This document shows, piece by piece, positions 3,444-51,755 of a stretch of DNA of 64,000 nucleotides. The DNA comes from a virus. Where the stretch lies: the IMG/VR virus record IMGVR_UViG_3300009499_000148, positions 1 to 64,000 of that record, one strand, 5' to 3'. Position 1 is the stretch's first letter, and every line of letters starts with the position of its first letter. The position numbers and the translations under genes are program-made. Under the pieces are notes generated by a model. It had not been told where the DNA came from, searched no databases, and saw only the letters and a list, made by a program, of their open reading frames with translations.

Positions 3444-3472
3444 TTATAATGGTACATGTATACAGCATGTAT

Positions 3473-6781: not shown

Positions 6782-6818
6782 GCAACATCCTATATCATCA
6801 ATCTTATAACACAATACA

Positions 6819-32334: not shown

Positions 32335-32629
32335 CGACTTCCTCCGTAATGCCGCCGTATGGAGCAGCTAGCACATTCGAAACATACAATATCGAATCAC
32401 GAACATTTGCCATCTGTCGCACGACATGCTGTGCCTCAGGAGTATTGACTGCTATCGGTAGCTCAAGCACACCAACAACATGTCCATACGCACTATCACA
32501 TACATCAAGTGCCTCACTCAATGCATCCTCAAGCTCAATGATGATACGAGCATATCGCATAAGAACACGTATGCACATGATTAATGCAGCAAAAAGCACA
32601 ATGCTCATGATTGTCAAGAACGCAATCAC
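32315..32629 (-). CDS. Small single-pass membrane protein, 104 aa
   Basis: GTG 32629 is favoured: GGGA lies six bases upstream and the codon overlaps the stop of the glycosyltransferase gene by four bases. A TTG at 32641 would give a slightly longer protein. The first 25 residues are a strong hydrophobic helix (AFLTIMSIVLFAALIMCIRVL) followed by positive residues (MRYAR), suggesting N-out or signal-anchor topology. The remaining 70 residues are soluble and helical (ALSEALDVCDSAYGHVVGV, VRQMANVRDSILYVSNVL). Its end overlaps the start of the gp55 gene by 20 bases. Function unknown. Confidence 0.65.
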   Translation of the reverse strand: MIAFLTIMSIVLFAALIMCIRVLMRYARIIIELEDALSEALDVCDSAYGHVVGVLELPIAVNTPEAQHVVRQMANVRDSILYVSNVLAAPYGGITEEVDDAKDS

Positions 32630-33813
32630 AGCTTTTCCCAAAGCTCATCATACATCTTCGAGATTGATGAGTGACTGAATCTATCTAGAACGATGGGTGA
32701 TAGCTCTTTTGCCCATTGCATCGGTATCGCGGGTCTCTCATAAAACTTAAGTAACCTTGACTTCGCGTCATGCTCACTTGGCTCAGCCCATCTAGAACCC
32801 TGCATGAATATTGCACGTGCAGCATCATTTGGACCGGGCCTGTCAATCCGAGTTGGTGGAAGCTCCTTAAGTTCAAAATCAACCTTGATGAAACGACCGA
32901 ATTTCATGAAATCTAGATGACCAGACCAGTTCGTGGCGATGACGGGTAGACCAGCCGCTGCGGCCTCTAGGATGGGAAGACCGTAGCCCTCACCACGCGT
33001 GAGCGTTAAGAACGCCTTAATCGAGTCATGATGATACAACGATGCCATCTCATCATCTGTCAGCATTCCATGCACAAGGCTGACACGTGGATATGGGCCC
33101 TTTCTGACCTGATTTAGCACACCCCTCAGCGTGTCAACAGTGACCCTACGGTCAATCTTCGTTTCACGCCCAGAGTTCGTCTTGATGATGAGACCGACAT
33201 CTGGATTATCCTTGAACGTCTCACAAAACCACTTCAACGTGTTAAAGATGTTCTTTCTATCACCCTCGACAGACCTCGACGTGAGCTGACCAACAAGCAA
33301 AAAATTGAACTTTGTTTCAAATTCAAACGATGACGGCTTAATTGAGTCAGCATCAAGCAGTGTGTCGATGAATGACTCCGGTATCACATGCAATGAATCG
33401 GGTCGATTGATGATACCCGTCTTTTCAATGACGCCACGTGTGAAAGTAGATGGCACAATCACATGCTCCATGGAATTGATGGCACCCAACCACGCAGGAT
33501 TGCATGTCGTCGTCTCAACAATCGCTGAAACACCGATGTTCGTCTTTGCAATACCGGGCGTCCACTCATTCGGAAGCTGCACCTGAAACGAGACATCGAA
33601 CGGGCCCTTGTCGTCCCTTGACCTATCAATCATTTGTCCAATGAGACCACCGCATGCTTCACGGTCTAGGTACCATGGCGTGATGCCCCATGGAGTGGGA
33701 TGTATCGTGAGCTCAACATCTGGCCTAGAAAGCAACCATCTAGCTATCTGACGCGTATGTACGCCATATCCCGATGAGCTCAGGGCCGGGCCACGCAATA
33801 ATACTTTTTTCAT
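32626..33813 (-). CDS. Glycosyltransferase, GT4-type (GT-B fold)
   Basis: 395 aa from ATG 33813, which is preceded by GGAGGAG. An upstream in-frame ATG at 33843 lacks a ribosome site. The N-terminus (KKVLLRGPALSSSGYGVHTR) is the typical first strand and donor loop of GT4 enzymes. The C-terminal half holds LTLTRGEGYGLPILEAAAAG, the E-x7-E motif that binds the nucleotide-sugar, followed by LPVIATNWSGH. The substrate cannot be told. It is closely comparable to the intein-bearing glycosyltransferase encoded immediately upstream and shows what that protein looks like without an intein. Confidence 0.85.
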   Translation of the reverse strand: MKKVLLRGPALSSSGYGVHTRQIARWLLSRPDVELTIHPTPWGITPWYLDREACGGLIGQMIDRSRDDKGPFDVSFQVQLPNEWTPGIAKTNIGVSAIVETTTCNPAWLGAINSMEHVIVPSTFTRGVIEKTGIINRPDSLHVIPESFIDTLLDADSIKPSSFEFETKFNFLLVGQLTSRSVEGDRKNIFNTLKWFCETFKDNPDVGLIIKTNSGRETKIDRRVTVDTLRGVLNQVRKGPYPRVSLVHGMLTDDEMASLYHHDSIKAFLTLTRGEGYGLPILEAAAAGLPVIATNWSGHLDFMKFGRFIKVDFELKELPPTRIDRPGPNDAARAIFMQGSRWAEPSEHDAKSRLLKFYERPAIPMQWAKELSPIVLDRFSHSSISKMYDELWEKL

Positions 33814-33815
33814 CT

Positions 33816-33822
33816 CTCCTCC
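33816..33822 (-). promoter_or_regulatory. Strong ribosome binding site GGAGGAG deciding the glycosyltransferase start
   Basis: Reads GGAGGAG on the minus strand, a few bases before ATG 33813. It is the clearest Shine-Dalgarno sequence in this part of the window and excludes the longer reading from 33843. Confidence 0.6.
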
Positions 33823-33850
33823 ATATATTACAATACTCAACAACTGTCTG

Positions 33851-36325
33851 TCACAGTTTCACAATCTCAACAGGACGATAGATGCTAGCTTTATTGCTCT
33901 TCCACGTTTCAATCGTCGTCGAAAGCGTCGTGTGCCAATCAGCGACCGTCTTTGAGAGACTAAACTCAGACAACACATACTGTCTGGCCTTCTCTCCAAG
34001 ACGTTCTCTTTCTTCATTACCCATGTCAAACATCTTAAGAAGAGCATCTGCGATTGTCTGGTTTGAACAGTAATCCTCGTAGATGTACGGACACAGCTGG
34101 CTTCCAACAAGAGTTTGCACCTCAACAGGAAGCGCGATACCATTCTCAGAACCATCACGATGGTCGACCACCTGACGTGTGAGGCCTCCCGTCTTTAATG
34201 CAATGATTGGTGTGCCGCACTGCATCGCCTCAAGTGTGCCTAAACCGAAGCCCTCATTACAGTTATGCGCTAAACATGTCTTAGTGGCATAAGAGTTATC
34301 TTTTTCAACTTCAAGATTAAACACCTTACATTCTACATCATCAACGTCAATCTCAAAAATACGTGCAATAATCAAGTTACCAACATTCCATGTTCGACAT
34401 GAACCATTCGAGCCCTCGGCATGTCGTCTATCACGCCACTCAATAGTCCAAATGCGTCCATTCTTGTTGTATCCATGACTATTATCATCATCATGTATCT
34501 GAGGACAATAGCCCAATGAAACAAGAAGTTGTTTCATATCAACCGCTAGACCATTTGAAATTGTTCTAACACGATTGACATACGTTGCATGTTGTTTATG
34601 AAACAGAACGCAACCGTCTCCTGCTTGATAGCCAGCTAAAAATGCCCTTTTGATGCTTTCATTTGATGAAAGAATTGCTCTTGGAATTCTTTTACCCTCA
34701 GAATATTCACCACAAACGTCTGTTATAAACGCTGAGTATACTGCTGGGTTCTTAAGATTTACTTCTAAGTGTCTGTCAAATTCTTTGATATAAGCAGTCT
34801 GTCCAAACACTCTTTCATACTTTTGGCGTAGCGTTTCTGCTAAATCAGCATCAAGCTTATTAAATGACACACTCATTGAATGAGTTGAACCATCAGCTAT
34901 CCATTCACCGAGAACATACGCGAAATCTTCATCAAGCTTGATATTTTCATGAGCAGCAAACTCGTCTATGCTCAATGCACAGTTATATTTAATTTTGCCA
35001 TTTTCACATCTGTATTTCATACGTGTTTTATTAAAATGCTCAAAACTTTCATCTTTAACTGAGTCCCAAACATTAAACTCATACGCATTAACACTGTCTA
35101 TTTTTTCGACACAATCTACGACATAGTCACCAACGCAAACATCAGACACCCTAATCCACTCAGCATGCTCAATCATGCTTTTTATATTTCTGCCAGGTAA
35201 TGAATTTGCGTGCTCACGCCTAATGACACGAATCGGATGTTCTTCTGTCATAGATAGTGTATCTGCATTTGACACATGTATCGTGTATAGTTTTCCAGAA
35301 TACTGTCTTTCATATTTTCGAACGACGGGCATGTATCTTCCCATATGCGTCAACACACTGTCGCCCGGTTCAATTGTTTCAATATCTTGGAATCCTTTTT
35401 CTGAAACAACTTTTGTTTTTGCAGGAAAACAGCTTATATTCACGACAACGTCAGAGATGTTATGCATCACCGCAACGTCTTCAAACAGAATTCTGTCCTT
35501 CGAAAAAATGACATCATTCTGTATCCCCAGCATCTCTGATGTTGCTACGAGGTTCGAGCCTGCCTGGTCGAATGGGTCCGTATGCATCAGAAGCGTCGCC
35601 TTTCTATGTCCGTGCTTCTTCTCAAGCATGTCCATGAACAGCTTCCATGCCTCGAGGAGGTCATTCGACCTCTTTCTCTTTGCATTTCTGTTTATCCAAA
35701 ATGACACGAAGTGGTCTTGGCGGTCAGGAGGAAGGAGACGCTTCTTAAAATCAGCCACGACGGTCGGCGAAAGTGGATGGAATATCTCCTGTGGGACAGC
35801 ATGAGGAATAAAATTAGTCTTCTCAGGAAAGTGTTCATGCACCATCTTATACGTGAGGTATGAATGACAATTGATGAGGTCTGTGCTTTCATACAGCACA
35901 CGATTGAACTCAGGCCACGGTAAGTTATCCCATACATGCCAATAAACTATCGGACATACCTGGTGTATCTCCTCTTCCATCTCCCATAGCCAAATGAAGA
36001 AGCGAGGGTCAGTAAAAATGAACAAGGCGTCTGGTTTTTCTGTCGCTAGGACCTGCCTCATCATGTTTGTGTCACCGAACCCGTCGATGGGTTTGATGAT
36101 GAAATCACCCGGCTCCCATGCAGCGCTCGTCGGTGGAACAGAGACCGTCTTATAGTCAGCGTGTTTGACAGCAGCGCCAAAACACTTGATGCGATACTCA
36201 CCCGTGTCTAGAAGTCCTGTTAGGAGGTATCGTGCCTGTGTACCAACTCCACTGGTTGATAAAGGATGGTCACAGAGCACCAATATCGTCTTCTTTTTTT
36301 TCTCAACAATTTTTACATTTTCCAT
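33851..36325 (-). CDS. Intein-containing glycosyltransferase (GT4-type)
   Basis: 824 aa precursor. Residues 1-298 and 689-824 join to a 434-aa GT-B glycosyltransferase of normal length: KKTILVLCDHPLSTSGVGTQ opens the N-terminal Rossmann domain, and after splicing the sequence VNIS-CNEGFGLGTLEAM restores the E-x7-E nucleotide-sugar motif. Residues 299-688 are an intein with Cys at both splice junctions. The precursor should be inactive until splicing because the insertion falls at the donor-binding loop. Its start overlaps the stop of an endonuclease gene (TAATG at 36325). It presumably acts with the neighbouring transferase at 32626-33813 on a phage or host glycan. Confidence 0.9.
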   Translation of the reverse strand: MENVKIVEKKKKTILVLCDHPLSTSGVGTQARYLLTGLLDTGEYRIKCFGAAVKHADYKTVSVPPTSAAWEPGDFIIKPIDGFGDTNMMRQVLATEKPDALFIFTDPRFFIWLWEMEEEIHQVCPIVYWHVWDNLPWPEFNRVLYESTDLINCHSYLTYKMVHEHFPEKTNFIPHAVPQEIFHPLSPTVVADFKKRLLPPDRQDHFVSFWINRNAKRKRSNDLLEAWKLFMDMLEKKHGHRKATLLMHTDPFDQAGSNLVATSEMLGIQNDVIFSKDRILFEDVAVMHNISDVVVNISCFPAKTKVVSEKGFQDIETIEPGDSVLTHMGRYMPVVRKYERQYSGKLYTIHVSNADTLSMTEEHPIRVIRREHANSLPGRNIKSMIEHAEWIRVSDVCVGDYVVDCVEKIDSVNAYEFNVWDSVKDESFEHFNKTRMKYRCENGKIKYNCALSIDEFAAHENIKLDEDFAYVLGEWIADGSTHSMSVSFNKLDADLAETLRQKYERVFGQTAYIKEFDRHLEVNLKNPAVYSAFITDVCGEYSEGKRIPRAILSSNESIKRAFLAGYQAGDGCVLFHKQHATYVNRVRTISNGLAVDMKQLLVSLGYCPQIHDDDNSHGYNKNGRIWTIEWRDRRHAEGSNGSCRTWNVGNLIIARIFEIDVDDVECKVFNLEVEKDNSYATKTCLAHNCNEGFGLGTLEAMQCGTPIIALKTGGLTRQVVDHRDGSENGIALPVEVQTLVGSQLCPYIYEDYCSNQTIADALLKMFDMGNEERERLGEKARQYVLSEFSLSKTVADWHTTLSTTIETWKSNKASIYRPVEIVKL
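34262..35431 (-). mobile_element. Intein with LAGLIDADG homing endonuclease, 390 aa
   Basis: Begins with Cys (codon TGT 35431-35429) in CFPAKTKVVS, the block A pattern. Block B is TEEHPI at intein residues 62-67. The two dodecapeptide motifs YVLGEWIADG (about 172-181) and FLAGYQAGDG (about 264-273) both keep their acidic catalytic residue, so the endonuclease looks intact. The end is CLAHN followed by Cys+1 (TGT 34261-34259), the canonical block G and +1 nucleophile. Class 1 Cys1/Asn/Cys+1 chemistry is therefore complete. No GATC occurs in it, so it has either adapted to this genome or arrived from a similar one. Confidence 0.92.
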
Positions 36326-37239
36326 TAAAGAACTCCTAACTCCTTCAGCTCATGTTCGCGAATTATGACGATATTAACGCTTTCATTACTTCGTCTAATG
36401 CATTCAAATTTTTCAAGTGAATGACTCAACACAAACTCGTTTTTTGTATCTACGAATGAATCACGACCCTTCCAATTTTTCACAAAAAAGTCAGGAAAAT
36501 ATAGGCGCTGTTTGCCTTTTGTGTCGAACCACACCAGGGGCTTCGGATGTGTCTCAAACACATACCCATTAGCATCCAAAAATTTTATGAACCCGAGTTC
36601 CCATGTGCCCTGAACATGGTTCGACCGGCCCAAAGAGTCGATGTAATCATACCACCTAACGTTCGTAAAAATTACATTATTAAAGTCGCCTCTTTCCCAC
36701 GCTTGCTGCACTGATATCGATAAAGCCGTTCGCGTCTTTGGGCTGTGCTTTTTACCGTAATACGGATTTCCCGGGCCACGGTATGACGCATTTTGACATG
36801 TTGAACCACAAAATTTTGCGCTTTTTCTGCTCTTAATAACGCTAAATGTAACACCACACTGCCTGCATACATTTTGTACTCTTTTATGGGAGCGATGCTC
36901 ATATGAACATTCACGTGAGCAATACGTTCGATTCAAAAGCTTTCTAGATGTAAAGTCATTTTTGCATGTAAGACACTGCTTCTTCTCATATGCTTCACTC
37001 TTACGAAGGCCATTGATTGACTCTCTAGCGCAACCGTCGTAGCAATGCTTGCGTGCTCTATCAATGTAGGAAGCAATAAACGTTTTACCACATGATGTAC
37101 AGTCAATGCTAACATCAGGATGCTTTTTGATGTGCAATTTTGTCGCACATGATTTGCTGCACGTTGAACGTAAAGCATCTTTCAAACGTTTTCTTACAAC
37201 GCTAAAATCAACAGCACATACATCACAACGCATGTGCAT
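36325..37239 (-). CDS. Zinc-finger PD-(D/E)XK-like homing endonuclease
   Basis: About 304 aa from ATG 37239. A second ATG lies two codons on, and a longer reading from 37296 has no ribosome site. N-terminal zinc fingers repeat as CxxC...C-xxxC (CDVCAVDF, CTSCGKTF, CLTCKNDF, CRQCGVTF with RTYCSREC and AKFCGSTC). The module GNPYYGKKHS is a NUMOD3-like DNA contact. The C-terminal nuclease has RLYFPDFFVKNW and DSFVDTKNEF, a plausible D...DxK catalytic pair. It sits directly 5' of the intein-bearing glycosyltransferase and is related in plan to the endonuclease at 2421-3443. Confidence 0.75.
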   Translation of the reverse strand: MHMRCDVCAVDFSVVRKRLKDALRSTCSKSCATKLHIKKHPDVSIDCTSCGKTFIASYIDRARKHCYDGCARESINGLRKSEAYEKKQCLTCKNDFTSRKLLNRTYCSRECSYEHRSHKRVQNVCRQCGVTFSVIKSRKSAKFCGSTCQNASYRGPGNPYYGKKHSPKTRTALSISVQQAWERGDFNNVIFTNVRWYDYIDSLGRSNHVQGTWELGFIKFLDANGYVFETHPKPLVWFDTKGKQRLYFPDFFVKNWKGRDSFVDTKNEFVLSHSLEKFECIRRSNESVNIVIIREHELKELGVL

Positions 37240-37385
37240 TATGACACGAGTTCTCTTTGGACCAATGTGCTCTAGGCTTTCGCTCAATAAAACCATCGTA
37301 TATTATGCTAGTGTCGCATTCACGCACGTATCAGTGATACGAGCATTATGCTTCATGACACCGTCGATTCTTAAAATCACAACAT

Positions 37386-39558: not shown

Positions 39559-40137
39559 TCACCCGTCCTTCAGCATCAACGTATCGATGCATTCACATAT
39601 GATGTGCTCAACAGCCAACATCCTCTCCTGGATGATTGCTGTCGTTGAGCCGCCGACAGCAATAGCGACATCAGACAGTTTCTCAAGCCTCGTGTCTTTC
39701 CCACCCACAAGCCCAATCGTCTTCAGGGCCCTCTCTCTAGCATACTCCATTGCATTGAGGATGCTCTTGGATGAACCCGATGTGCTGATACCAAGGATGA
39801 CATCATCAGGATTACACAGCGCTTCTAGCTGTCTCCTAAAGACATAGTCGTACTCCCAATCATTGGCAATCGCAGTAAGCGCTGATGTGTCTGTTGTGAG
39901 CGCGATGGCAGGAAGACCCTCCCTATCACGTCTGAAGCGACCAACGAGCTCAGCCGCCATGTGCTGTGAGTCAGCGGCGGAGCCGCCATTACCACATATG
40001 AATAAGCGACCACCCCTGTTGAAAGCTGAAACAATCAGACATGCTGCATCACAAATCTCTGGAGCAACATCATGAAGCGCGGGCCGGAAGCCACGCCTAT
40101 CATCAATGAGCTCATGTATGTCTTTAAGAAGCTTCAT
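39559..40137 (-). CDS. gmhA: Phosphoheptose isomerase-like SIS domain protein (GmhA family)
   Basis: 192 aa, full length for the family. The SIS-domain hallmarks are present: FICGNGGSAADSQHMAAEL, then GRFRRDREGLPAIALTTD, ILGISTSGSSKSI and a C-terminal QERMLAVEHIICECID. GmhA converts sedoheptulose-7-phosphate to D-glycero-D-manno-heptose-7-phosphate, the first step of ADP- or GDP-heptose synthesis. No other heptose genes (kinase, phosphatase) are visible in the window, so it may borrow host enzymes or act on another sugar phosphate. It lies four bases from NeuB and is clearly part of the sugar operon. Confidence 0.85.
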   Translation of the reverse strand: MKLLKDIHELIDDRRGFRPALHDVAPEICDAACLIVSAFNRGGRLFICGNGGSAADSQHMAAELVGRFRRDREGLPAIALTTDTSALTAIANDWEYDYVFRRQLEALCNPDDVILGISTSGSSKSILNAMEYARERALKTIGLVGGKDTRLEKLSDVAIAVGGSTTAIIQERMLAVEHIICECIDTLMLKDG

Positions 40138-40140
40138 TTC

Positions 40141-41067
40141 TTAACCCAGTGTGTTCGTCTTTCGAAGCTTCTTGATTATGGGTTGCTCACTGTCATAAAC
40201 CCTCTTGACACCGTTACCCATCATCGATGTCGTGATGCGAACGTAATCAACGAGCTTCTTCACACCCTCAGGTTCAAGGCTTGCGCTCTGGTCTGAACCG
40301 TATGACGTTCTATCGAGTGTGATATGGAACTCAAGCATCTTTGCACCAAGAGCGACGACGGCGGGAACCCATGACAGGCCTGAGTAGTGATTTGAAAAAC
40401 CGATGTTCGGTCGCGACCTATCGTTGAACGTCATAGTCGTCATGCTCAGGTTCTTGAGACCCATATCCACGGCACGTGCAAGGCGTGGGATGATGTCGAA
40501 TGAATCGTTCAGAGTTCGAATGTAGCTCAGGTTCATCTCTTCTGGCTTCGTTGGATATGTGCTTGTGCAATGGAGGATTGTGTCAAGGCTTGTGCCAAGA
40601 ATATCACACGCTCTGAATATCTGTTCCTCTGTCGCCATTCCCGTCGATAGGATGACTGGCTTCCTCGTCATGACCAACCGCTCAAGAAAACGAACGTCAG
40701 TCAGCAATGCTGATGCGACCTTATGAAAGGGTACATCGAAATTGTTATCGATGAAATCGACTGACAACTTATCCCAACATGAGACGAACCATCCGATGCC
40801 ACGCTCACGACAGTGCTTATCGATGGCGTGGTATTCATCTAGACCAAACTCAAGTCCCTCTTTTTGAGCACGGTTCGTCTTTCCCCACGGGCTTTCACGA
40901 GGAGCATCTAGCTCTTCCTGTGTGTAGCATGTGTTGATGTCCCGCTTCTGAAACTTTATGTAATCGCAACCACTATCTGCAGCTACGTCGATAAGCTTCC
41001 TAGCAATGTCAATCGAACCGTTTGCGTTAATCCCTGCCTCGGCAACAAGCGTGATACCATTAATCAT
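40141..41067 (-). CDS. NeuB-family acidic sugar (nonulosonate) synthase
   Basis: 308 aa from ATG 41067, preceded by GGGG at good spacing; a GTG at 41091 is possible but not needed. Family motifs: LVAEAGINANGSIDIARKLI, CDYIKFQKRDIN, PVILSTGMATEEQI, LHCTSTYPTKPEEMNL, IGFSNHYSG and LEFHITLDR. These are the PEP-binding TIM barrel of sialic acid and legionaminic acid synthases. The usual C-terminal antifreeze-like SAF domain (about 60 residues) is essentially absent: the protein ends shortly after DSEQPIIKKLRK. It would condense PEP with an aldose-type precursor. Confidence 0.85.
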   Translation of the reverse strand: MINGITLVAEAGINANGSIDIARKLIDVAADSGCDYIKFQKRDINTCYTQEELDAPRESPWGKTNRAQKEGLEFGLDEYHAIDKHCRERGIGWFVSCWDKLSVDFIDNNFDVPFHKVASALLTDVRFLERLVMTRKPVILSTGMATEEQIFRACDILGTSLDTILHCTSTYPTKPEEMNLSYIRTLNDSFDIIPRLARAVDMGLKNLSMTTMTFNDRSRPNIGFSNHYSGLSWVPAVVALGAKMLEFHITLDRTSYGSDQSASLEPEGVKKLVDYVRITTSMMGNGVKRVYDSEQPIIKKLRKTNTLG

Positions 41068-41121
41068 ATCTCTAACCCCTAAGCTGTCCACAACGTAAGT
41101 TTCATTGTATAGTCCTATTGT

Positions 41122-41592
41122 TTACTTAAAAAATGCACGTATATATGTTTTAAAGTTTTTTACAAAAACAAAGAACATATGAAACTGTAATGATATAGAT
41201 GTGTCATACTTCAACATGATTCGATATGCTCTCAACCATGCATTAAATTCAAAACGAACTCTATGGAAATCAACTCTATCATCAGAAAAATCTTCGCTGA
41301 GTCTTATATAGCCTTCTTTTTCTTGTTGAGTATGTCCATATTCATGTAATAAAACACATGCACACTCTTTAATATTAAAAGGCCAATGTATTGAATATAA
41401 AGAACTAGCTTTGGGTGAAAAATCTTCACTTAAAAATAAAAAAGGCCTTAAGGCAAATTTCGGCGATATTCTTACTTGAAGTGGTATTTTTTCATACTGA
41501 AAATTTCGATTGTCAAATATCAATTTTTGTGAATGAGGTTGACTATCAATAATATGATTCCAAAGCCTATTACACTTAATGTTATTACACAT
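41122..41592 (-). CDS. Small zincin-like protein with HEYGH motif, 156 aa
   Basis: ATG 41592 overlaps the SDR stop (TGATG). The key feature is CVLLHEYGHTQQEKEGYI: a hydrophobic helix with HExxH, the zinc-binding and catalytic motif of metallopeptidases, and a Glu/Gln-rich continuation. No signal peptide is seen. The C-terminus is hydrophobic and aromatic (FHMFFVFVKNFKTYIRAFF), perhaps amphipathic. The gene is much more AT-rich than the SDR and NeuB genes around it, as are the orphan and endonuclease genes, which suggests a separate origin. It could be an anti-host protease or a toxin-like moron. Function inferred from one motif only. Confidence 0.6.
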   Translation of the reverse strand: MCNNIKCNRLWNHIIDSQPHSQKLIFDNRNFQYEKIPLQVRISPKFALRPFLFLSEDFSPKASSLYSIHWPFNIKECACVLLHEYGHTQQEKEGYIRLSEDFSDDRVDFHRVRFEFNAWLRAYRIMLKYDTSISLQFHMFFVFVKNFKTYIRAFFK

Positions 41593-42383
41593 CACCACGC
41601 TCTCCATCCTGCATCGATCGCGATATCGGCGCCCGTGACGTAGCTCGACATATCGCTAGCAAGGAATGCAATCACGCCCTTGAGCTCCTCGGGTCTTCCA
41701 ACGCGGCCCAACATGGTCTTCTTCTGAAGCTCTTCCTCGAACCATCCCCTGTCGTTATCAAAGCTACCCGGCCGTGAGAACGATCCAGGAGAGATGCTGT
41801 TGCAACGTATCCCATGCTTTCCACCGATGGCTGCGATGTATCGCGTTGCCTGCAACATCGCTGCCTTCATCGCACCGTATTGTATCGCATTTCCCATTCC
41901 AGGTGTGTCCCTGTAGATTGCATGATTGGGTGCAACATGTCCAAGCATCGATGCGACATTGATGATGCTCCCACCACCCTGTGCTTTCATCACACCATAC
42001 ACTACCTGTGTCAGCATCAGAGGCCCAACGAACCCATCAGTCGCTGCACGTGTCGCACCGTCGACCGTGAGATTCTCAAAATCAAGCTCCTTGCTCCACT
42101 CATGGCTGTTATTGACTAGAATGTCGATGCGACCCGTTCTGTTGAGAACGACATCAACGATTGATGACATCGGGTCTGCTGTGACGTCAGCGACGACTGT
42201 GTGAAAGTTGCTGACATTGATGTGTGTCGTGAATGATGTGCTCTTACCCCTCGACACGGCAAAGACATCACAGCCAAGCTCACTCAATGTCTCACACATC
42301 GGAGCGCCGAGCCACCCAGTGCCTCCAGTGACTATCGCAGTGCGACCCTTGAGGTCAATCAGCTCATTTATCGGTTTCATCAT
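41592..42383 (-). CDS. Short-chain dehydrogenase/reductase
   Basis: About 263 aa. ATG 42383 and the adjacent ATG 42380 are both possible. TAIVTGGTGWLGAPMCETL is the NAD(P)-binding Gly-rich loop, VNNS the structural NNxG-like site, INVASMLG carries the catalytic Ser and YGAMKAAMLQ is the YxxxK pair. The C-terminal YVTGADIAIDAGWRAW is the usual SDR end. A second SDR lies at 44139-44822. Next to NeuB and a TIM-barrel isomerase it probably oxidises or reduces a sugar intermediate. The substrate is unknown. Confidence 0.85.
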   Translation of the reverse strand: MMKPINELIDLKGRTAIVTGGTGWLGAPMCETLSELGCDVFAVSRGKSTSFTTHINVSNFHTVVADVTADPMSSIVDVVLNRTGRIDILVNNSHEWSKELDFENLTVDGATRAATDGFVGPLMLTQVVYGVMKAQGGGSIINVASMLGHVAPNHAIYRDTPGMGNAIQYGAMKAAMLQATRYIAAIGGKHGIRCNSISPGSFSRPGSFDNDRGWFEEELQKKTMLGRVGRPEELKGVIAFLASDMSSYVTGADIAIDAGWRAW

Positions 42384-43191
42384 ACCCAAGAATTCTATTA
42401 ACAAATGCAACGTTGTTCATGAAAAGCTCTTTCTCTTTGCCGTTCTCACCGCGTGCTGTCTGAAACGTCACATACTCTACACATGGCCATCCCTTGATGT
42501 ACTCGATATCATCCAACGAGGTGTTTCCCTGACCGAGTGGCACTGTCGAACCAAGCCTCTTTGAAAAATCCTTCACATGAACATTATCAACCCATTTGCT
42601 GACATGCTTATCGTAATCTGTGATGTAGATGCCGTGCTTCGTCATGTTTCCCGTGTCCATCGTGATACGAAAAACATCATCATGCTTGTTCAAGAGCTGC
42701 ATCATCGCCTCTAACGTGTACGGGTCGAGGTCTGTCTCTAAAGAGAACGTGATGCCTTTCCATATCCTAGCGACATTGACGAGCTCCATCATCACGCAAA
42801 GCATGAGTGATGTATCGTGTGCAAGCGATGCCTTCTCAAGGAATGGAAGCACAAGCTTTCTGATGTGTTGCTTCTGCAACGTTACACATGCATCAGCCAA
42901 CACTCTGCTTCTGAACGATGACGATATGAACTCATCAGATATCAGAACGTCTAGACACACTGCACTGACATCAACGGGTAGCTTTCTCACATCACACCTG
43001 TCAAGCTGCAACACTGACTCACGCTCAGTCCATATCCACTCGATGTGTGATGCTTTGACCTCACGTGCTATGTCAAACTCTTCTTCCCATCGACCCCATG
43101 GAAAGCTCTGGATGAAATCACTCTCCTGTGGAAGAAGACGTCCCTGTATCACACCGTACATACGCGGTGTCGTGCGTATGAAATCACTCAT
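42364..43191 (-). CDS. Sugar phosphate isomerase/epimerase-like TIM barrel protein
   Basis: 275 aa. MYGVIQGRLLPQES and SFPWGRWEEEFDIAREV lead into HIEWIWTERE, the usual first two strands of the AP endonuclease 2/xylose-isomerase-like family. ITFSLETDLDP, RITMDTGNMTKHG and VDNVHVKDFSKR supply the conserved Glu, Asp and His metal ligands. LGQGNTSLDDIEYI is the conserved loop after the last ligand. It would isomerise or epimerise a sugar. It overlaps the SDR gene by about 20 bases and the small gene before it by eight. A DNA repair role is unlikely because of the sugar-gene context. Confidence 0.8.
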   Translation of the reverse strand: MSDFIRTTPRMYGVIQGRLLPQESDFIQSFPWGRWEEEFDIAREVKASHIEWIWTERESVLQLDRCDVRKLPVDVSAVCLDVLISDEFISSSFRSRVLADACVTLQKQHIRKLVLPFLEKASLAHDTSLMLCVMMELVNVARIWKGITFSLETDLDPYTLEAMMQLLNKHDDVFRITMDTGNMTKHGIYITDYDKHVSKWVDNVHVKDFSKRLGSTVPLGQGNTSLDDIEYIKGWPCVEYVTFQTARGENGKEKELFMNNVAFVNRILGYDETDK

Positions 43192-43375
43192 CGCTTTTCA
43201 ACATCCGTGAGACGCTGTCAGTGATTGACGACGTCAATGAACCCACAAGAGGTATGTGCAACAGAGAATGTGCATTTATGATATCGATTCGATTGATAAG
43301 CACATTCTCTGTATACTGAATGTTTCGACCTGAGAAGTCAAGGGCATCAGTCATACACACGCCCGACGCTTTCAT
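43184..43375 (-). CDS. Small hypothetical protein, 63 aa
   Basis: The start forms an ATGA overlap with the 43372 stop of the upstream gene and the end overlaps the TIM-barrel start by eight bases. This tight coupling supports a real gene despite its size. It has a central hydrophobic stretch (HSLLHIPLVGSLTSSI) too short and polar for a sure membrane helix. No family recognised. Confidence 0.55.
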   Translation of the reverse strand: MKASGVCMTDALDFSGRNIQYTENVLINRIDIINAHSLLHIPLVGSLTSSITDSVSRMLKSDE

Positions 43376-43929
43376 CGATTGTCCTCGTACAGTGCGGCGC
43401 GCCTGGCAGAGCGTTCTAGCTCTGAGATGATGCCGCTAAGACCGAAAATACAATCACCTGAAAGAATCAGCTCCTGCATACCTATGAACGTAGATGTTTC
43501 TGTCGTGTTGAGATTCCAGATACGCTTGAACTGCTTAGAGTGTAGCATGCAAACATCACCCATCGGTTCTCCATCATCGTTAACGATTGCAAAGACGTAA
43601 TACGTGTCATCGCCGTCTTTATTGAATGACTCAACATGGTCGTGTGTAGCAGTGATTGTCGTTCCATTTTTCACAGACTTACAGCTCAATCTTGCGAATC
43701 GCCGACCGTTCGAATAAAGCAAGATGCCGCCGTACCTCTCGTCTAGGCTCGGTATGAATGATGAAAACAGCTGCCTCGATGAAGACTTTCCACAAAACGC
43801 GTCGATTAGTTGTTTAATTGTCACGATACGAACACAATCAACATTCAACTTGGCGCTCAACATCCGCTGCATATATTTTTCAAAATCATGGCCCTGCTTA
43901 GCTCTGCCTGATTCTTTATCATACGTCAT
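43372..43929 (-). CDS. Hypothetical protein, 185 aa, possible nuclease-like fold
   Basis: ATG 43929 is preceded by GGAG at six bases. The TTG at 43941 is not favoured. The start AKQGHDFEKYMQRML (helix with Glu) and a later strand-turn RFARLSCKSVKNG resemble the first helix and the E/D-x-K strand of restriction-type PD-(D/E)XK folds, but the acidic residue before the Lys is replaced (SCK), so catalysis is doubtful. It lies between a Cys-rich small protein and a 63-aa protein in a coupled run. The function is unknown and the fold idea is speculative. Confidence 0.6.
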   Translation of the reverse strand: MTYDKESGRAKQGHDFEKYMQRMLSAKLNVDCVRIVTIKQLIDAFCGKSSSRQLFSSFIPSLDERYGGILLYSNGRRFARLSCKSVKNGTTITATHDHVESFNKDGDDTYYVFAIVNDDGEPMGDVCMLHSKQFKRIWNLNTTETSTFIGMQELILSGDCIFGLSGIISELERSARRAALYEDNR

Positions 43930-43941
43930 GATGCTCTCCAA

Positions 43942-44154
43942 TCAAATCTCATTAGCACACGTGCGTGTGCATTCATCGCAACAGTTGCAGACATCATCAT
44001 CACAACCGTTGACGTCGCTATCATATGGGCATGGATGACGTTTAGTGCCAGCGTTTATGCCGCACTTTTTGCATTTTCTTTTTCGTTGTCTCTTAACGTC
44101 AATCGGCTTCACACTCTCATCACTGCTTTCATCATGTTTCATATGATTGTCCAT
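43942..44154 (-). CDS. Small cysteine-rich, probably zinc-binding protein, 70 aa
   Basis: Eight Cys lie within the C-terminal half: KCKKCGINAG, HPCPYD, NGCDDDVCNCCDECTRTC. The first CxxC with a later cluster suggests one or two zinc sites. The N-terminus is charged and His-rich (MDNHMKHDESSDES), followed by a very basic patch (KRQRKRKCKK). Its start lies inside the end of the SDR gene, so it is coupled to it. Could be a nucleic-acid-binding or metal-sequestering peptide. No family recognised. Confidence 0.6.
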   Translation of the reverse strand: MDNHMKHDESSDESVKPIDVKRQRKRKCKKCGINAGTKRHPCPYDSDVNGCDDDVCNCCDECTRTCANEI

Positions 44155-44822
44155 CCACCGTCAATGATTATCTCTGCACCCGTCATGTATCTGTTATCTT
44201 GTGAAAGAAGCATTCTCATGGCTGGCTCAAGGTCCTTCAGTGAAGCCATCCTACCCATCGGTGCATACGAGCCATATAGGTTCTTAAACTCAATCGGTTG
44301 GTCATGTGAGACACCGCCAGGAACGATGCAGTTGACGCGTATGTCGGGTGCAAGATGCACAGCAAGGATTCGTGTCAGATGTGCAACGCCCGCTTTCGAC
44401 ACAGAGTAACCAACGTGCTTATGAGCGCCGTCATACATGTCTGGTCGAGCAGAGACGATGCCAGTCGATGCACCAAAATTAACGATGTTGCCGTGCTTGT
44501 TGTTTCGTGCATACTCACGACAGACTGAAAAGAGCGACGTGAGATTGACCTCAAGACAGTCTCTAAAGCTCTGCAAAGGAAGGTCGAACAGCGTTCCTCT
44601 CTTCTCACCTGAAGCAACGTGGTCGTTGAATGCGAACAGATTCACTATCGATGATGCCTGGCCCTGCGGAGATGCAAAGAACTCCCTGACATACGCTTCA
44701 TCAGTGAGGTCATGGCCGAGCGCGACATCAAGCTCGATGACCTCCTCAAGCAACGTATTCATTATGAACTGCACCATGTGCTGTCCAATCAATCCCCTAG
44801 AACCTGCAACTATCACAGTCAT
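44139..44822 (-). CDS. Short-chain dehydrogenase/reductase (second copy)
   Basis: 227 aa. VIVAGSRGLIGQHMVQFI is the cofactor loop, IVNFGASTGIV the Ser site, and YSVSKAGVAHLTRIL the YxxxK pair. VNCIVPGGVSHD and MTGAEIIIDGGWTII complete the fold. The start is preceded by GAGG at seven bases and overlaps the endonuclease stop by four bases. The gene therefore follows the Vsr-type endonuclease, which splits the operon between aminotransferase and SDR. Likely acts on a nucleotide-linked or free sugar in the same pathway as the other SDR. Confidence 0.85.
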   Translation of the reverse strand: MTVIVAGSRGLIGQHMVQFIMNTLLEEVIELDVALGHDLTDEAYVREFFASPQGQASSIVNLFAFNDHVASGEKRGTLFDLPLQSFRDCLEVNLTSLFSVCREYARNNKHGNIVNFGASTGIVSARPDMYDGAHKHVGYSVSKAGVAHLTRILAVHLAPDIRVNCIVPGGVSHDQPIEFKNLYGSYAPMGRMASLKDLEPAMRMLLSQDNRYMTGAEIIIDGGWTII

Positions 44823-45697
44823 TTTTCGACCTCAATAATTGAAAAATTTTTCGACCTTACATCACTTTCACGTATTCTAACTAATTTTAGACAATGCTCA
44901 GCAAACCATTGATTTTGTTCTTTATCAGTTTGAATTTTTTTCAAAATTACTTTATCTCTAGCAGAACTTGAATTAAGAAGTTGTTCTATCGATCTATCAA
45001 GACCATGCCAATAATCACCATCAACTTGAATATAAAGCTTTTTAGACTTAACATAAAAATCGATCGGCCACTTATGAACAAACACTTGATATTCAACATC
45101 ATCAATTCCAAACAGTTTTTGAAGAAAAATATCTACATGACATTCAGGCTGTGTTTTTTGTCCATATGATGAATTTCGCTTCATCGTTTCATGTTGTCTA
45201 GCCCTAATCGACGGATCATTTTCAATGGCTTTTTTCATAGAAAAGCTTTTTTTCATTTTGACTTCAGGTCTATTTTGAGATTCTGTAAGAGAGATTATCC
45301 GTTTTTCTCTAACAACTGGATCTATCCAACTAATTTTTAGCTTTTCACTTTTTTTGAATCGAACTTCAGGTCTATTTTGTGCTTCTTTATTTGAGATTCG
45401 TTGTTTTTCTTTGACTGTCGGATTAGCTTGTATCTTTTTTGATATCTCAGAACGTATTTTTCTTACACCAGGTTGAGACCAGATTTCTTTTTGAGCTTTA
45501 CTCTTTTTTTCTCGAATATCATCACGATTAGCAAACTCTTTCATTGCTAGTTTATGATTTTTTTTAGCTTCTACTGTTTGACAACCATTTCTTTGTGAAA
45601 GATCTCTAATCTCTTTCCATTTTTCATCATGATGCTTACGATGAATACGCATTCCTTTGTTTGATTGAAAATTTCGAAGACAAATATCACAAATCAT
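44819..45697 (-). CDS. Vsr/EDxHD-type homing endonuclease with basic repeats, C2H2 finger
   Basis: 292 aa. It starts with a C2H2-type finger (CDICLRNFQSNKGMRIHRKHH). Then come tandem basic units with Asn-Arg-Pro-Glu-Val-Arg/Lys-x-Lys-Lys-Ser (about 17-18 residue period, at least four). The C-terminus resembles the Vsr/very-short-patch type catalytic fold (GIDDVEYQVFVHKWPIDFYV, then LYIQVDGDYWHGLD), with W-F-x-EHCLKLVRI near the end. It is strongly AT-rich and carries five of the about fourteen GATC sites in the window (44991, 45062, 45214, 45319, 45601), in sharp contrast to its neighbours. It is probably a recent insertion. Both ends overlap the adjacent genes by four bases. Confidence 0.8.
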   Translation of the reverse strand: MICDICLRNFQSNKGMRIHRKHHDEKWKEIRDLSQRNGCQTVEAKKNHKLAMKEFANRDDIREKKSKAQKEIWSQPGVRKIRSEISKKIQANPTVKEKQRISNKEAQNRPEVRFKKSEKLKISWIDPVVREKRIISLTESQNRPEVKMKKSFSMKKAIENDPSIRARQHETMKRNSSYGQKTQPECHVDIFLQKLFGIDDVEYQVFVHKWPIDFYVKSKKLYIQVDGDYWHGLDRSIEQLLNSSSARDKVILKKIQTDKEQNQWFAEHCLKLVRIRESDVRSKNFSIIEVEK

Positions 45698-46656
45698 CTT
45701 TTATTCCATTCTTTAACTTGACTAATAAAATCAATGCCAACATTTCGTGACCACTGTTGACATATTTGCTGTGTAATCAGCCCCATTGGTTCTGAGTTAA
45801 TACAACCCTTTATCAATTGCCCGTTGAGACGATTACATGGAATAAGATTAGTGAACGTCCCAGTGAAAAATGCCTCATCTGCATTTAGAACATCATAAGG
45901 TTCAAAATTACATTCAATAACCTCGAGACCAAGCACCGGTGCTATGACATCGATGATGTACGTCATGCTACATCCACGAAGCACATTCCTGAGTTCTGGA
46001 ACGATAATCTTACGGTCTTTAATGATGACAAAGTTCGCACCTGTGCCCTCTGCGATAAGACCCTGTTCATCAAGCAGTAGCGCCTGCGCGTCCTTACCGT
46101 AGTGATTGGCCTGGATGTTCGCCAACATTAGATGAGCCCTTGAACGAGATTTCACCTTAGGGTCGAGGTATTGAGACGATATCTGTCTCTGCGGCACGAT
46201 GACAGCATTCGCACCAGTCTCATAGAAATGAGCCATCGTCTTTGCTGTCTTACTGAGAGGCCATGCGTTGATAATCCACGTCGGCTGGCCCCATTCCTCA
46301 CCCTCATCAAGCTCAAATACCTCACGATACACAGGTAGTGGGCCACGAGAGACATTAATCATGAAACGATACTCGTCATCTCTATAATGGGATTCATTCC
46401 TAACCATGACATCATGGATGATATCACGGAGCTCATTTCGCGTCTTATTGATGGGAATTGAAAAGCTTCTCATCGATGAAAAAAGTCTATCGATGTGCTC
46501 GTCGAGTAAGAAATGACGATGAACAAACGTTCGATGCATCTCAAAACAACCATCACCAAACATGAATTGTGAATCAGTCCATGAGATGGAAAGCTCCTCA
46601 TCAGGAAGCCAACGACCATTCTTATAACCGATGCGGCCCGTAGAAATTGGTCTCAT
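45694..46656 (-). CDS. PLP-dependent class IV aminotransferase
   Basis: 320 aa, full length. MFGDGCFEMHRTF is the class IV opening. LDPKVKSRSRAHLMLANI carries the PLP-binding Lys, ALLLDEQGLIAEGTGANF is the signature region, and VLRGCSMTYI and EAFFTGTFTNLIP complete the cofactor pocket. Members include branched-chain and D-amino-acid aminotransferases and aminodeoxychorismate lyase. In a sugar operon, transfer of an amino group to a sugar-derived or other keto acid is possible but is not shown by the sequence. GAGGG seven bases upstream marks ATG 46656. Confidence 0.8.
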   Translation of the reverse strand: MRPISTGRIGYKNGRWLPDEELSISWTDSQFMFGDGCFEMHRTFVHRHFLLDEHIDRLFSSMRSFSIPINKTRNELRDIIHDVMVRNESHYRDDEYRFMINVSRGPLPVYREVFELDEGEEWGQPTWIINAWPLSKTAKTMAHFYETGANAVIVPQRQISSQYLDPKVKSRSRAHLMLANIQANHYGKDAQALLLDEQGLIAEGTGANFVIIKDRKIIVPELRNVLRGCSMTYIIDVIAPVLGLEVIECNFEPYDVLNADEAFFTGTFTNLIPCNRLNGQLIKGCINSEPMGLITQQICQQWSRNVGIDFISQVKEWNKR

Positions 46657-46690
46657 TGGATGACCCTCAACAAGATACAGTTAAAAAAAA

Positions 46691-47410
46691 TCATCCCTCA
46701 ATCTGCCTCTTCTTCCAATCATCATTACGATACTGATTGATGACCGTCAGCCCAGGATGTTTCATGAAGAAATCGACAATCTCAGAACGAGTGCATCCAG
46801 AGCCAAGGATGCGATGCACTGTCGAAATGACCCAATAATCTTGCTCATAATCAAGCGTAAGACGGATGTCCTTCTCAATCGGTTCAACATAAAATCCAAG
46901 CATCGCCTGCTTCAGACCCGGCAACAGATGCTTCCACACCATCTCAGTGCTGATGTTTGGATTAACGTTGTCAAGCGACGATACTATCGACGACGTCTTG
47001 AATGCCCAGCCATGTGAGCCAAGATACGCATCCATGTTAGGAGCAACGACGTCTAGGCCCCTTGCTTCAAGCTGGTCCATCGACTGCTGACACAACCCAC
47101 CATCAAAGAATGGGTCGTCAGCATCGACTGTGATGAACTGTTTCACACCAAAACGCTCACATGCCTGTGCCCACCTCAACATCTTATTCTGAGCAGGGCC
47201 CCTGTGGATACGTTCTCCGACGATTGGACGCAACATCTTCACAAGAGCATCATCAGAAGAGTCATCTGTCGTCGCGATGATGGGAGAAAATCCGAACCCG
47301 ATGCATCTATGAACGACATGCTGTATCACAGTCGTCGTGCCAAGAGGCAGGAGACACTTTCCAGGAAGCCGCGTCGATGCAGTTCGAACAGAGATGATTG
47401 CATCAATCAT
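46691..47410 (-). CDS. SpsF/KdsB-type cytidylyltransferase
   Basis: 239 aa from ATG 47410, preceded by AAGGAG eight bases upstream. IDAIISVRTASTRLPGKCL is the nucleotide-binding loop (RxxSxRxPGK), and ITVDADDPFFDGGL holds the Mg2+ site. Such enzymes attach CMP to acidic sugars such as sialic acid relatives. Together with the NeuB-type synthase about 6 kb downstream it suggests a CMP-activated nonulosonate-like sugar. The start overlaps the HTH gene end by eight bases. Confidence 0.82.
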   Translation of the reverse strand: MIDAIISVRTASTRLPGKCLLPLGTTTVIQHVVHRCIGFGFSPIIATTDDSSDDALVKMLRPIVGERIHRGPAQNKMLRWAQACERFGVKQFITVDADDPFFDGGLCQQSMDQLEARGLDVVAPNMDAYLGSHGWAFKTSSIVSSLDNVNPNISTEMVWKHLLPGLKQAMLGFYVEPIEKDIRLTLDYEQDYWVISTVHRILGSGCTRSEIVDFFMKHPGLTVINQYRNDDWKKRQIEG

Positions 47411-47663
47411 TCCCATGCTCCTTCTCAAGAACACGCATCAGATGCTTGAACGTCGAACGCATGAACGCGGGGGCGGGTGTTGTTGCACCGTCCATCCAAT
47501 GCTTAATCGTCTGTTGCGACACACCCATCTTCTCAGCAAGGTCTGCAAGCTTAAATTGCATCAATGCATATGCATTCACTAACGCTGTCCTACATGCGGG
47601 TGCATCCTCAAAATCAACAGCACGAAGCTCATCCATCAATGCAATGTATTCACTGACATCCAT
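47403..47663 (-). CDS. XRE-type helix-turn-helix protein, 86 aa
   Basis: KLADLAEKMGVSQQTIKHWM in the middle is a helix-turn-helix with the typical AxxxGVSxxTI spacing. Helices before (CRTALVNAYALM) and after (MRSTFKHLMRVL) complete a five-helix fold. It could repress transcription within this operon or elsewhere. It overlaps the next start by eight bases and the preceding stop by one (TAATG at 47663), so it is co-expressed with sugar genes, which is an unusual place for a repressor. Confidence 0.7.
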   Translation of the reverse strand: MDVSEYIALMDELRAVDFEDAPACRTALVNAYALMQFKLADLAEKMGVSQQTIKHWMDGATTPAPAFMRSTFKHLMRVLEKEHGND

Positions 47664-49224: not shown

Positions 49225-49946
49225 CACATGCTACCTGACATGAGACCGTCGATAAAACTGAACTCATACTCACCGACATGCTCATGAAGGAATGCAATCA
49301 GCTCTGTCGTCATCTCACTAGAAAGGTAGTTGCTGTCCCATTCACATGCATGATACATGACCTCGAGTGCATCATCACGCATGACCAATGGCTTCTGCGG
49401 AGGAGCACAGTGATACATCACATGTCTCAAAGATGCATAGGCACCGTCATACGTCTTCATCGCATAATCATCTGGGCTCAATGCAAACAACGTAAAGCCC
49501 CTATCGTGGAATGCACGCATCGCATCAGGGCTCATACGCCATGCAGGAGGCCTGATGATGGGCTTGAATGCATCGATGAGGCCGGCCTTGGTGACACCTT
49601 CGAACATCCCATCGATGACACACAATGCATCGTCGTAGCTCAGGTGCTGTAATTCATCATTATTTGACCTGCCCGGTATCCCATGATGAAGACCATGATA
49701 TGCAAGCTCATAGTTATTCTTGTCTAGACCACGCAACACATCACAGAAGTCGGGATGCTCATGAAGCCAAAGGGGTTCTGCTGTCGCCGTGTGCCCCACT
49801 GTTCTCCAGTATGCTATCGGGACGAACAGCGTGAACTTTACATCAGGAAATTCCTTGATGATGCGCTCACACTGCCGAAGCACACGTATTGATGACATCG
49901 GGTGTGGAGAAACATCGTCTATTGATATGTTCAGAGGTGTTGTCAT
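49224..49946 (-). CDS. Polysaccharide deacetylase-like (NodB-type) protein
   Basis: 240 aa from ATG 49946, overlapping the endonuclease stop by four bases. ISIDDVSP gives the DD metal pair. YHGLHHGIPG gives the HxxxH ligands, and IRPPAWRMSPDAMRAF is the conserved RPP motif. The C-terminal MYHACEWDSNYL may provide the catalytic His. Metal-dependent removal of N- or O-acetyl groups from a glycan or glycan precursor is expected. It lies with the methyltransferase and the transferase at 47663-48592, all coupled, consistent with glycan tailoring. Confidence 0.78.
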   Translation of the reverse strand: MTTPLNISIDDVSPHPMSSIRVLRQCERIIKEFPDVKFTLFVPIAYWRTVGHTATAEPLWLHEHPDFCDVLRGLDKNNYELAYHGLHHGIPGRSNNDELQHLSYDDALCVIDGMFEGVTKAGLIDAFKPIIRPPAWRMSPDAMRAFHDRGFTLFALSPDDYAMKTYDGAYASLRHVMYHCAPPQKPLVMRDDALEVMYHACEWDSNYLSSEMTTELIAFLHEHVGEYEFSFIDGLMSGSM

Positions 49947-50809
49947 TTTTTGGGTCTTCCAAACGTCCACCCCAATTCAAGATACTTGTCGACTTCATCT
50001 ACTTTGACATGCTTATATCCAGACATCTCTGGATTCGACATTATCTTTCGACCTGAAAGACTTTCAGTCATTTTCTTTTTATTTTTAGGATTTGAGAATT
50101 GGCGCTTAGTTGCTATACGTTGCTTTTCTTTCGTTTCTGGATTTGACATCGCTAACTTTATTGCATCACTTCGACGTTTTTTAACGTCAGGCCTTGCATC
50201 AGTAACTTTTCTACGAAGTTTTCGATCGGCATCAGTCCACATTTTTCGAAGACCTTTGCTGCGATTTTCTTTTGCTTTTGGCGTCGACAAGCTTTCTTTA
50301 ACAGCTTTTGAATGACGCTCCTTTACGTCTGGTTTATTTAAAGCATTTTTTATCGCTACATTACGCTTTTCACGATTTTCAATACTAGCATTTGCCCATA
50401 CTGCTTTGCTAGCAGCTGATTGTCTAGCCTTTACTTCAGGTAATGCTAACGTTTCTTTCATTGAAAGGCTTAGTCGTAGTAATGCTTCTTCACTCAAAGA
50501 CGAGCCTCCAGCTAGTTTATTATAACCGTACCTTGAATCATTCGTTTTCCATAGTGCTATATGTTCAATTTCTCGTTTATCAAGCTCTTCTCTTGATGAA
50601 CATTCACAAACTAACTGCCACTTGAACCCGTTAAAGCCGTATTTCTTTAGAGCATTATCTAAATGAAGATTATGACCTTTCTTGCTATATCTCTTAGAGA
50701 GATATTTCAATAAATCAACTACTGCAACTCGATTTCTTGTTTGTCCAACATAACGTTTTTGATTTACAATGTTCGTTGCACAATAAATCACTCCATAAAC
50801 ATTAGACAT
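49943..50809 (-). CDS. GIY-YIG homing endonuclease with tandem basic repeats
   Basis: 288 aa from ATG 50809; an upstream TTG at 50818 is closer to a GGAG and may also be used. GVIYCATN, KRYVGQTRNR and KREIEHIALWKTND give the GIY-YIG core, with the Glu in EIEH. Then come at least five basic units of the form xP-x-x-K-x-x-x-S/R-A-x-K (KPDVKERHSKAVKESL, RPDVKKRRSDAIKLAM, NPETKEKQRIATKR). The same unit occurs in the Vsr-type endonucleases at 44819, 51752 and 59052. The gene is AT-rich with one GATC (50224). It separates the deacetylase from a glycosyltransferase. Confidence 0.85.
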   Translation of the reverse strand: MSNVYGVIYCATNIVNQKRYVGQTRNRVAVVDLLKYLSKRYSKKGHNLHLDNALKKYGFNGFKWQLVCECSSREELDKREIEHIALWKTNDSRYGYNKLAGGSSLSEEALLRLSLSMKETLALPEVKARQSAASKAVWANASIENREKRNVAIKNALNKPDVKERHSKAVKESLSTPKAKENRSKGLRKMWTDADRKLRRKVTDARPDVKKRRSDAIKLAMSNPETKEKQRIATKRQFSNPKNKKKMTESLSGRKIMSNPEMSGYKHVKVDEVDKYLELGWTFGRPKK

Positions 50810-51755
50810 ACTTTTCAATTAACTCCACTAATGATTGACCAGCGCTTTTTCTAATATTATAAACAGGAAAATTTCCAGCATTGACACGATTTGCTAGTGT
50901 TGATAATGCTGTCTCGAACGACTCATTGAATGATTCTCCACAATTTCTGACATACTCTGGGATGCTTCCTCCATTCATATGATAAAGGATGGGAAGGCCA
51001 CAAGCCATCGCCTCTAGAACGTGGTTGGCGCCTGCCTCTTCCTCAGACGCTGTCACATACACATCATGCATCGGAAGAGACCTCGCAAGCTCATCGACGT
51101 CTAACACACCAGATGATGTGAATGTTGCCGTATCGGGTGCACGTCCGTAGAACGTGAACGTGTGCCCATTGTTCTTACACCACGCATCGAGCTCATTGTA
51201 GAACGCGAAGCCCTTCTTCGGGTTCATCGACCAATGATGCGTCACGAACCTGATGTTCTTCTGAGGAATTGGACGACTCACACGTCTATGTGCAAAGAAC
51301 GCTGGATTGGGTGAATTCCAAATGACAGCATAGTCATTCATCATCTTTCCTAGCTTGAAAAGACTGTCATTGACCATCGTGGAGCACCACTCACTTGGAA
51401 ATATCACGAAGTCAGACACGGGTGCAGTTCGAATGACGAGGTTTCTCAACTCTGGTTTCCCATGTGTTCCAATGTCTCCGACGCGCTGCACGATGAACGG
51501 TCGCTGTGATGCATTCGGGAAGATTGCCATGATTGCATCGTGTGAAAGCTCATCACTCGTTGCACCCTGTCGTGGGTCCATGCAGAAAATGACATCGACA
51601 CGTGCATCATCACGGAATGCATCTGATAATGAAAAGATGACATCATGACCAGCTGCACGTGCCTCATTGATGAATGACTGGAGGATGCGATTACCTCCTC
51701 CCCACGGGCCAGTGACCGGCTTGCGATTGCAGTATATCGTTAGTCTTGTTGTCAT
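50802..51755 (-). CDS. Glycosyltransferase, GT4-type
   Basis: 317 aa. The N-terminal Rossmann strand is LTIYCNRKPVTGPWGGGNR, with a Gly-rich donor or acceptor loop. RFVTHHWSMNPKKGF opens the second domain. TASEEEAGANHVLEAMACGLP is the E-x7-E nucleotide-sugar motif, followed by ILYHMNGGS. The protein is slightly shorter than typical GT4 enzymes but complete. Its start overlaps the endonuclease stop by four bases (51752-51755). Together with the GT4 at 52827 and the GT2 at 53726 it forms a transferase run that probably builds one oligosaccharide. Confidence 0.85.
   Translation of the reverse strand: MTTRLTIYCNRKPVTGPWGGGNRILQSFINEARAAGHDVIFSLSDAFRDDARVDVIFCMDPRQGATSDELSHDAIMAIFPNASQRPFIVQRVGDIGTHGKPELRNLVIRTAPVSDFVIFPSEWCSTMVNDSLFKLGKMMNDYAVIWNSPNPAFFAHRRVSRPIPQKNIRFVTHHWSMNPKKGFAFYNELDAWCKNNGHTFTFYGRAPDTATFTSSGVLDVDELARSLPMHDVYVTASEEEAGANHVLEAMACGLPILYHMNGGSIPEYVRNCGESFNESFETALSTLANRVNAGNFPVYNIRKSAGQSLVELIEKYV

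What the first reader, a model, noticed from the sequence alone, without database searches (positions are those of the whole stretch)
34262..35431. Intein inserted into the active-site motif of a phage glycosyltransferase
The 390-aa intein splits a GT4-type enzyme exactly at VNIS/CNEGFG, just before the E-x7-E nucleotide-sugar motif. Cys1, TEEHPI, two LAGLIDADG motifs with acidic residues intact, LAHN and Cys+1 are all visible. Phage inteins are usually found in DNA metabolism proteins (polymerases, ribonucleotide reductases, terminases, helicases), so a sugar transferase host is unusual. Placement in the most conserved motif fits the rule that inteins choose essential sites that cannot tolerate imprecise loss. 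The intein-free neighbour at 32626 shows the uninterrupted motif.
Basis: partly seen in the sequence, partly recalled or inferred. Interest (0 to 1): 0.86.

Follow-up and report, generated by a model that had tools for sequence, protein, structure and literature searches.

The report
Self-splicing intein in phage sugar transferase
A phage gene for a sugar-attaching enzyme is interrupted, inside its active-site motif, by a mobile protein segment that almost certainly cuts itself out; relatives of the same segment sit at exactly the same point in at least five other phage genes, while most related phages have the enzyme uninterrupted.

Summary
Observation confirmed at the stated coordinates: window 34262-35431 (-) encodes a 390-aa class-1 LAGLIDADG intein splitting an 824-aa GT4-type glycosyltransferase at VNIS/CNEGFG, just before E-x7-E. 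Removing it leaves a 434-aa enzyme that aligns without a gap, at the junction, with intein-free homologues 42-64% identical; more than 560 viral contig loci encode this enzyme. The intein is not unique: related inteins (30-44% identical, plus one fragment) sit at the identical site in five other phage contig alleles, scattered over the glycosyltransferase tree. All six have Cys at +1, although the last search also allowed Ser and Thr; intein-free relatives with Cys there exist (15 of 93), but the large Tyr/Phe clade holds no intein. Predicted structures are a Hint+LAGLIDADG intein and a GT-B fold, with the junction in a donor-site loop. So it is an ordinary intein in an unusual phage host protein; fungal chitin synthase inteins show that sugar transferases are not wholly new hosts. 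In passing: one allele's gene also carries a group I intron near its 5' end, and in three intein-bearing phages an endonuclease-like gene lies directly upstream, so this core gene is hit by several mobile elements. Splicing and homing are inferred, not tested.

The parts
33851..36325 (-). Precursor gene, GT4-type glycosyltransferase with in-frame intein (824 aa)
   Evidence: ORF and Pfam/PHROG hits
35432..36325 (-). N-extein (residues 1-298), ends VVVNIS
   Evidence: aligned with intein-free homologues
34262..35431 (-). Intein (390 aa), C1...HN390
33851..34261 (-). C-extein (residues 689-824), begins CNEGFGLGTLE
35231..35248 (-). Block B TEEHPI (T62, H65 of the intein; invariant in five alleles)
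34889..34918 (-). First LAGLIDADG motif YVLGEWIADG (D180 G181 invariant)
34613..34642 (-). Second LAGLIDADG motif FLAGYQAGDG (D272 G273 invariant)
34262..34330 (-). Blocks F and G, ending FNLEVEKDNSYATKTCLAHN (F:4 is Asn rather than Asp)
34259..34261 (-). Cys+1 nucleophile of the C-extein
34229..34255 (-). E-x7-E donor-sugar motif EGFGLGTLE
   Evidence: both Glu invariant in the alignments
32626..33843 (-). Second GT4-type glycosyltransferase, intein-free paralogue; conserved neighbour
36325..37296 (-). NUMOD3-bearing endonuclease-like gene whose stop overlaps the start of the intein-bearing gene

Best explanation
A mobile class-1 intein with an embedded LAGLIDADG homing endonuclease sits in a core glycosyltransferase gene of a large myovirus-like phage. 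Shown by sequence: a precise in-frame insertion, the splicing and endonuclease motifs, an empty site in orthologues, and related inteins at the same site in other phages. Inferred from established intein chemistry: Cys1 makes a thioester at the N-junction with help from block B Thr/His, Cys+1 takes over the N-extein, Asn390 cyclises with help from His389, and a peptide bond restores VNIS-CNEGFG and hence the E-x7-E donor site; the unspliced precursor should be inactive because the insert parts the donor-site loop. Inferred: the endonuclease cuts the conserved DNA of intein-free alleles during co-infection and repair copies the intein in; alleles lacking Cys at +1 cannot be stably invaded.
For: Hint, intein and LAGLIDADG profile hits. 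Clean empty site in intein-free homologues. Related inteins at the identical site in L007/L008, L009, L158, L161 and the fragment L160. Invariant C1, T62, H65, D180, D272, N390 across five alleles. The endonuclease domain is about as conserved as the Hint part among the closer alleles (window v L007 47 v 31%, v L161 49 v 42%, v L009 42 v 41%; lower in L158), so it is not plainly decaying. Predicted structure pLDDT 83; best PDB matches are TliVMA intein, PI-SceI and PI-PkoII. Intein GC3 is lower than extein GC3 in all five alleles, 0.28 v 0.52 in the window. Intein-bearing alleles are scattered, at least 5 state changes on an 82-row tree. Cys at +1 in all alleles, though one search also allowed Ser and Thr.
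Against: No splicing or cleavage data. Block F:4 is Asn in four of five alleles, and L007 has Ser at the penultimate position, so efficiency may vary. Intein and extein trees of five rows are poorly resolved, so repeated invasion cannot be separated from old presence with losses. Pfam Intein_splicing and Hint_2 scores lie below curated cut-offs.
Confidence: 0.93

Rival explanations
1. The insert is a native accessory domain of this glycosyltransferase subfamily and is not removed.
For: The reading frame is uninterrupted throughout.
Against: Orthologues 42-64% identical lack it with no gap at the junction; it has all splicing residues and splits the donor-site loop.
Confidence: 0.02
2. A degenerate intein that no longer splices, leaving the glycosyltransferase inactive.
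For: Asn at F:4; a second, uninterrupted GT4 gene lies next door.
Against: All nucleophiles and the terminal His-Asn are intact, both exteins keep the conserved GT4 residues, and all alleles keep Cys+1.
Confidence: 0.05
3. A regulatory intein: splicing is conditional (for example on redox state or stage of infection) and times the activity of the sugar transferase.
For: Insertion in the catalytic loop means activity must depend on splicing; several cysteines, one close to the C-terminal junction (CLAHN); conditional splicing, including cysteine-disulfide control, is reviewed in PMC4031507.
Against: Sporadic distribution, low GC and intact endonuclease motifs are fully explained by selfish homing; the Cys of CLAHN is not conserved in other alleles.
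Confidence: 0.05

Closest known systems
Class-1 inteins with LAGLIDADG endonuclease (PI-SceI/VMA, TliVMA, PI-PkoII)
   Same: Motif order, fold by prediction, mechanism expected
   Different: Host protein and insertion site; sequence identity to solved inteins is low (11-18% in the structural alignments)
Phage inteins in DNA cytosine methyltransferases (Lactobacillus phage Nyseid, Escherichia phages ph0011 and UE-S1) and in ribonucleotide reductase (Tenacibaculum phage PTm1)
   Same: Closest inteins in the phage record collection, 23-27% identical
   Different: Host proteins of DNA metabolism; different insertion sites
Fungal chitin synthase (CHS) inteins (PMC5784728)
   Same: Intein in a sugar transferase
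   Different: Different glycosyltransferase family and fold (processive GT2, from general knowledge), nuclear genes, different site
Mycobacteriophage inteins (PMC5050341)
   Same: Active-centre placement, phage hosts, homing endonucleases
   Different: Those host proteins all bind nucleic acid according to the paper; this one is a sugar transferase

Membership tests
Class-1 intein | N-terminal nucleophile (Cys1) and block B Thr-x-x-His | tested here: met
   C1, T62, H65 invariant in five alleles
Class-1 intein | C-terminal His-Asn followed by Cys/Ser/Thr +1 | tested here: met
   LAHN/C in the window; one allele (L007) has Ser-Asn
Class-1 intein | Asp at block F:4 (usual, but not strictly required; general knowledge) | tested here: inconclusive
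   Asn in the window and three other alleles, Asp in L007
Class-1 intein | Precise in-frame insert absent from homologues | tested here: met
   Empty sites in L001-L005 and the other intein-free loci
Class-1 intein | Autocatalytic splicing | not testable with these tools
   needs expression and mass spectrometry
LAGLIDADG homing endonuclease | Two LAGLIDADG motifs with acidic residues | tested here: met
   D180 and D272 invariant; PDB matches PI-SceI, I-DmoI
LAGLIDADG homing endonuclease | Cleavage of the empty allele | not testable with these tools
   needs a cleavage assay
GT4-type glycosyltransferase (GT-B fold, retaining) | GT-B fold and E-x7-E motif | tested here: met
   Model of orthologue L001 pLDDT 88; best PDB matches B736L, MshA, BaBshA; motif
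GT4-type glycosyltransferase (GT-B fold, retaining) | Sugar-transfer activity and donor | not testable with these tools
   substrate unknown

The most novel reading that the evidence does not exclude
A core sugar-transferase gene of a large-phage group is a shared target for several mobile elements (an intein gated by Cys at +1, a group I intron near the 5' end, and free-standing endonuclease genes upstream), which may home cooperatively.
Probability: 0.35. Interest if true: 0.6.

Novelty: new member of a known kind. Interest (0 to 1): 0.42.

Why it matters
It extends phage inteins to a sugar-transferase host that, in the papers I could search, had not been reported, and gives a natural series (six invaded and dozens of empty alleles, with and without Cys at +1) to test what limits intein spread: the DNA target or the splicing nucleophile. 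Annotation pipelines may also miss or misname the enzyme. The chemistry itself is standard.

Tried and rejected
A scan of genome contigs with the intein alignment gave no confirmed relative, and the junction pattern HNCxEGFG there gave 26 hits, none in an intein-bearing glycosyltransferase; this only covers inteins ending HN before Cys. A relaxed pattern allowing Ser/Thr at +1 in viral contigs gave no intein with another +1 residue; the other hits were unrelated proteins and one glycosyltransferase without an intein. Intein and extein trees of five rows were too weak to show horizontal transfer. No further intein in the phage's own record. No group I intron in the window. PHROG families 36001 and 21587 matched the intein part but carry no description. 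Novikova 2016 could not be read. Papers holding both intein and glycosyltransferase gave no phage precedent in the passages read; not all of the listed papers were opened.

Full report
What is there. The minus-strand gene at 33851-36325 encodes 824 aa; residues 299-688 (34262-35431) begin CFPAKTK and end CLAHN, and are followed by CNEGFGLGTLE. Profile searches see a group 1 glycosyltransferase with a Hint/LAGLIDADG insert. The stated coordinates are exact.

Empty site. A search of viral contigs with the precursor returned homologues whose matches cover both exteins but not the insert. Aligned to the joined exteins they read NIS-YAEGFGL, NIS-FAEGFGL, NIS-DAEGFGL or NIA-SNEGFGL with no gap or extra residue at the junction. 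In 93 intein-free ORFs in which the motif was found, the +1 position is mostly Tyr or Phe and is Cys in 15 (after taking out the four intein-bearing ORFs).

Other alleles. Searching with the intein found L007 and L008 (identical inteins) and L009, 37-38% identical over the full length; of 66 intein-like ORFs in the loci held after the wider scan, only those and the window's own lie in this glycosyltransferase, the others being in other proteins. A junction pattern (HN-C-x-EGFG) added L158, L161 and the C-terminal fragment L160. A second pattern allowing Cys, Ser or Thr at +1 and not requiring His found the same set, all Cys. Thus Cys+1 is not only a product of the first pattern, although divergent inteins with other ends could still be missed.

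Distribution. On a tree of 82 glycosyltransferases the five usable intein-bearing alleles are scattered, with at least five changes of state. Intein-free rows near them often have Cys at +1 (the NRSCNEGFGL clade beside L007; L072, L097, L129), while the clade of 60 rows with mostly Tyr or Phe holds none. I read this as a gate: an allele without a usable nucleophile cannot keep the intein. Shared ancestry is an alternative reason, and the number of independent events is small.

Structure and mechanism. AlphaFold models from alignments of window and locus proteins give an intein (pLDDT 83) whose best solved matches are TliVMA, PI-SceI and PI-PkoII, and for the intein-free orthologue L001 a GT-B fold (pLDDT 88) matching B736L, MshA and BaBshA. 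The junction falls between strand 278-281 and helix 290-297 of that model, the loop that leads into E-x7-E. The precursor should therefore be inactive until spliced; this is inference. Low GC3 of the intein relative to its exteins in five of five alleles fits a mobile origin.

Setting. The gene order PD-(D/E)XK nuclease, GT1, GT2 is conserved: of 99 loci with GT1, 81 show the nuclease and 97 the second transferase, and Flavobacterium phage immuto has the same order. The window's baseplate protein also matches immuto, Microcystis phage Mel-JY01 and uncultured large phages. The transferase is thus a core gene of a large myovirus-like group, beside, in the window, genes resembling nonulosonic-acid synthesis.

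A hot spot. In L161 the same gene also carries a group I intron (Rfam, 76 bits) between the codons for DHPL and STSGVG; the first exon MHKKKILMISDHPL is found just upstream. Endonuclease-like ORFs lie directly upstream of GT1 in the window, L009 and L161. The spacer between nuclease and GT1 has a median of 64 bases and exceeds 1.6 kb only in L009 and L161 (and the window), not in L007. The endonuclease queries came from these loci, so the comparison by homology is biased; spacer length is not, but the numbers are small and some loci lack upstream sequence.

Novelty. The intein is a standard one. A phage sugar-transferase host was not found in the papers searched, but most subscription papers are not held, and fungal chitin synthase inteins are a precedent for the host class.

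Noticed in passing
L161:10439-10747 (-): Group I intron (RF00028, 76 bits) inside the 5' end of the same glycosyltransferase gene that carries the intein, between the DHPL and STSGVG codons.
   Followed up: partly
window 36325-37296; L009:1285-2115; L161 reverse-complement 2986-3801: Endonuclease-like ORFs directly upstream of the glycosyltransferase in three intein-bearing phages; the L161 one has an in-frame stop.
   Followed up: partly
L009:2115-2200: Reading frame of the glycosyltransferase breaks at the position of the L161 intron (about 8 extra bases); repair scar, assembly error or frameshifting.
   Followed up: no
L007:2615-3796: Intein allele ends in Ser-Asn instead of His-Asn, a non-canonical penultimate residue.
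   Followed up: no
window 39559-47434: Cluster resembling sialic/nonulosonic-acid synthesis: SIS isomerase, NeuB, two SDRs, class IV aminotransferase, CMP-sugar-type cytidylyltransferase.
   Followed up: partly
window 49943-50818 and 5906-6832: Two GIY-YIG-type homing endonuclease genes with low GC3 (0.25 and 0.32).
   Followed up: no
window 51752-52894 and 44819-45697: Proteins with C2H2-type zinc finger matches; the second also weakly matches an HNH endonuclease family.
   Followed up: no
window 2421-3443: ORF matching an HNH endonuclease family at its front and a head-closure PHROG at its end, like the protein at 36325-37296.
   Followed up: no
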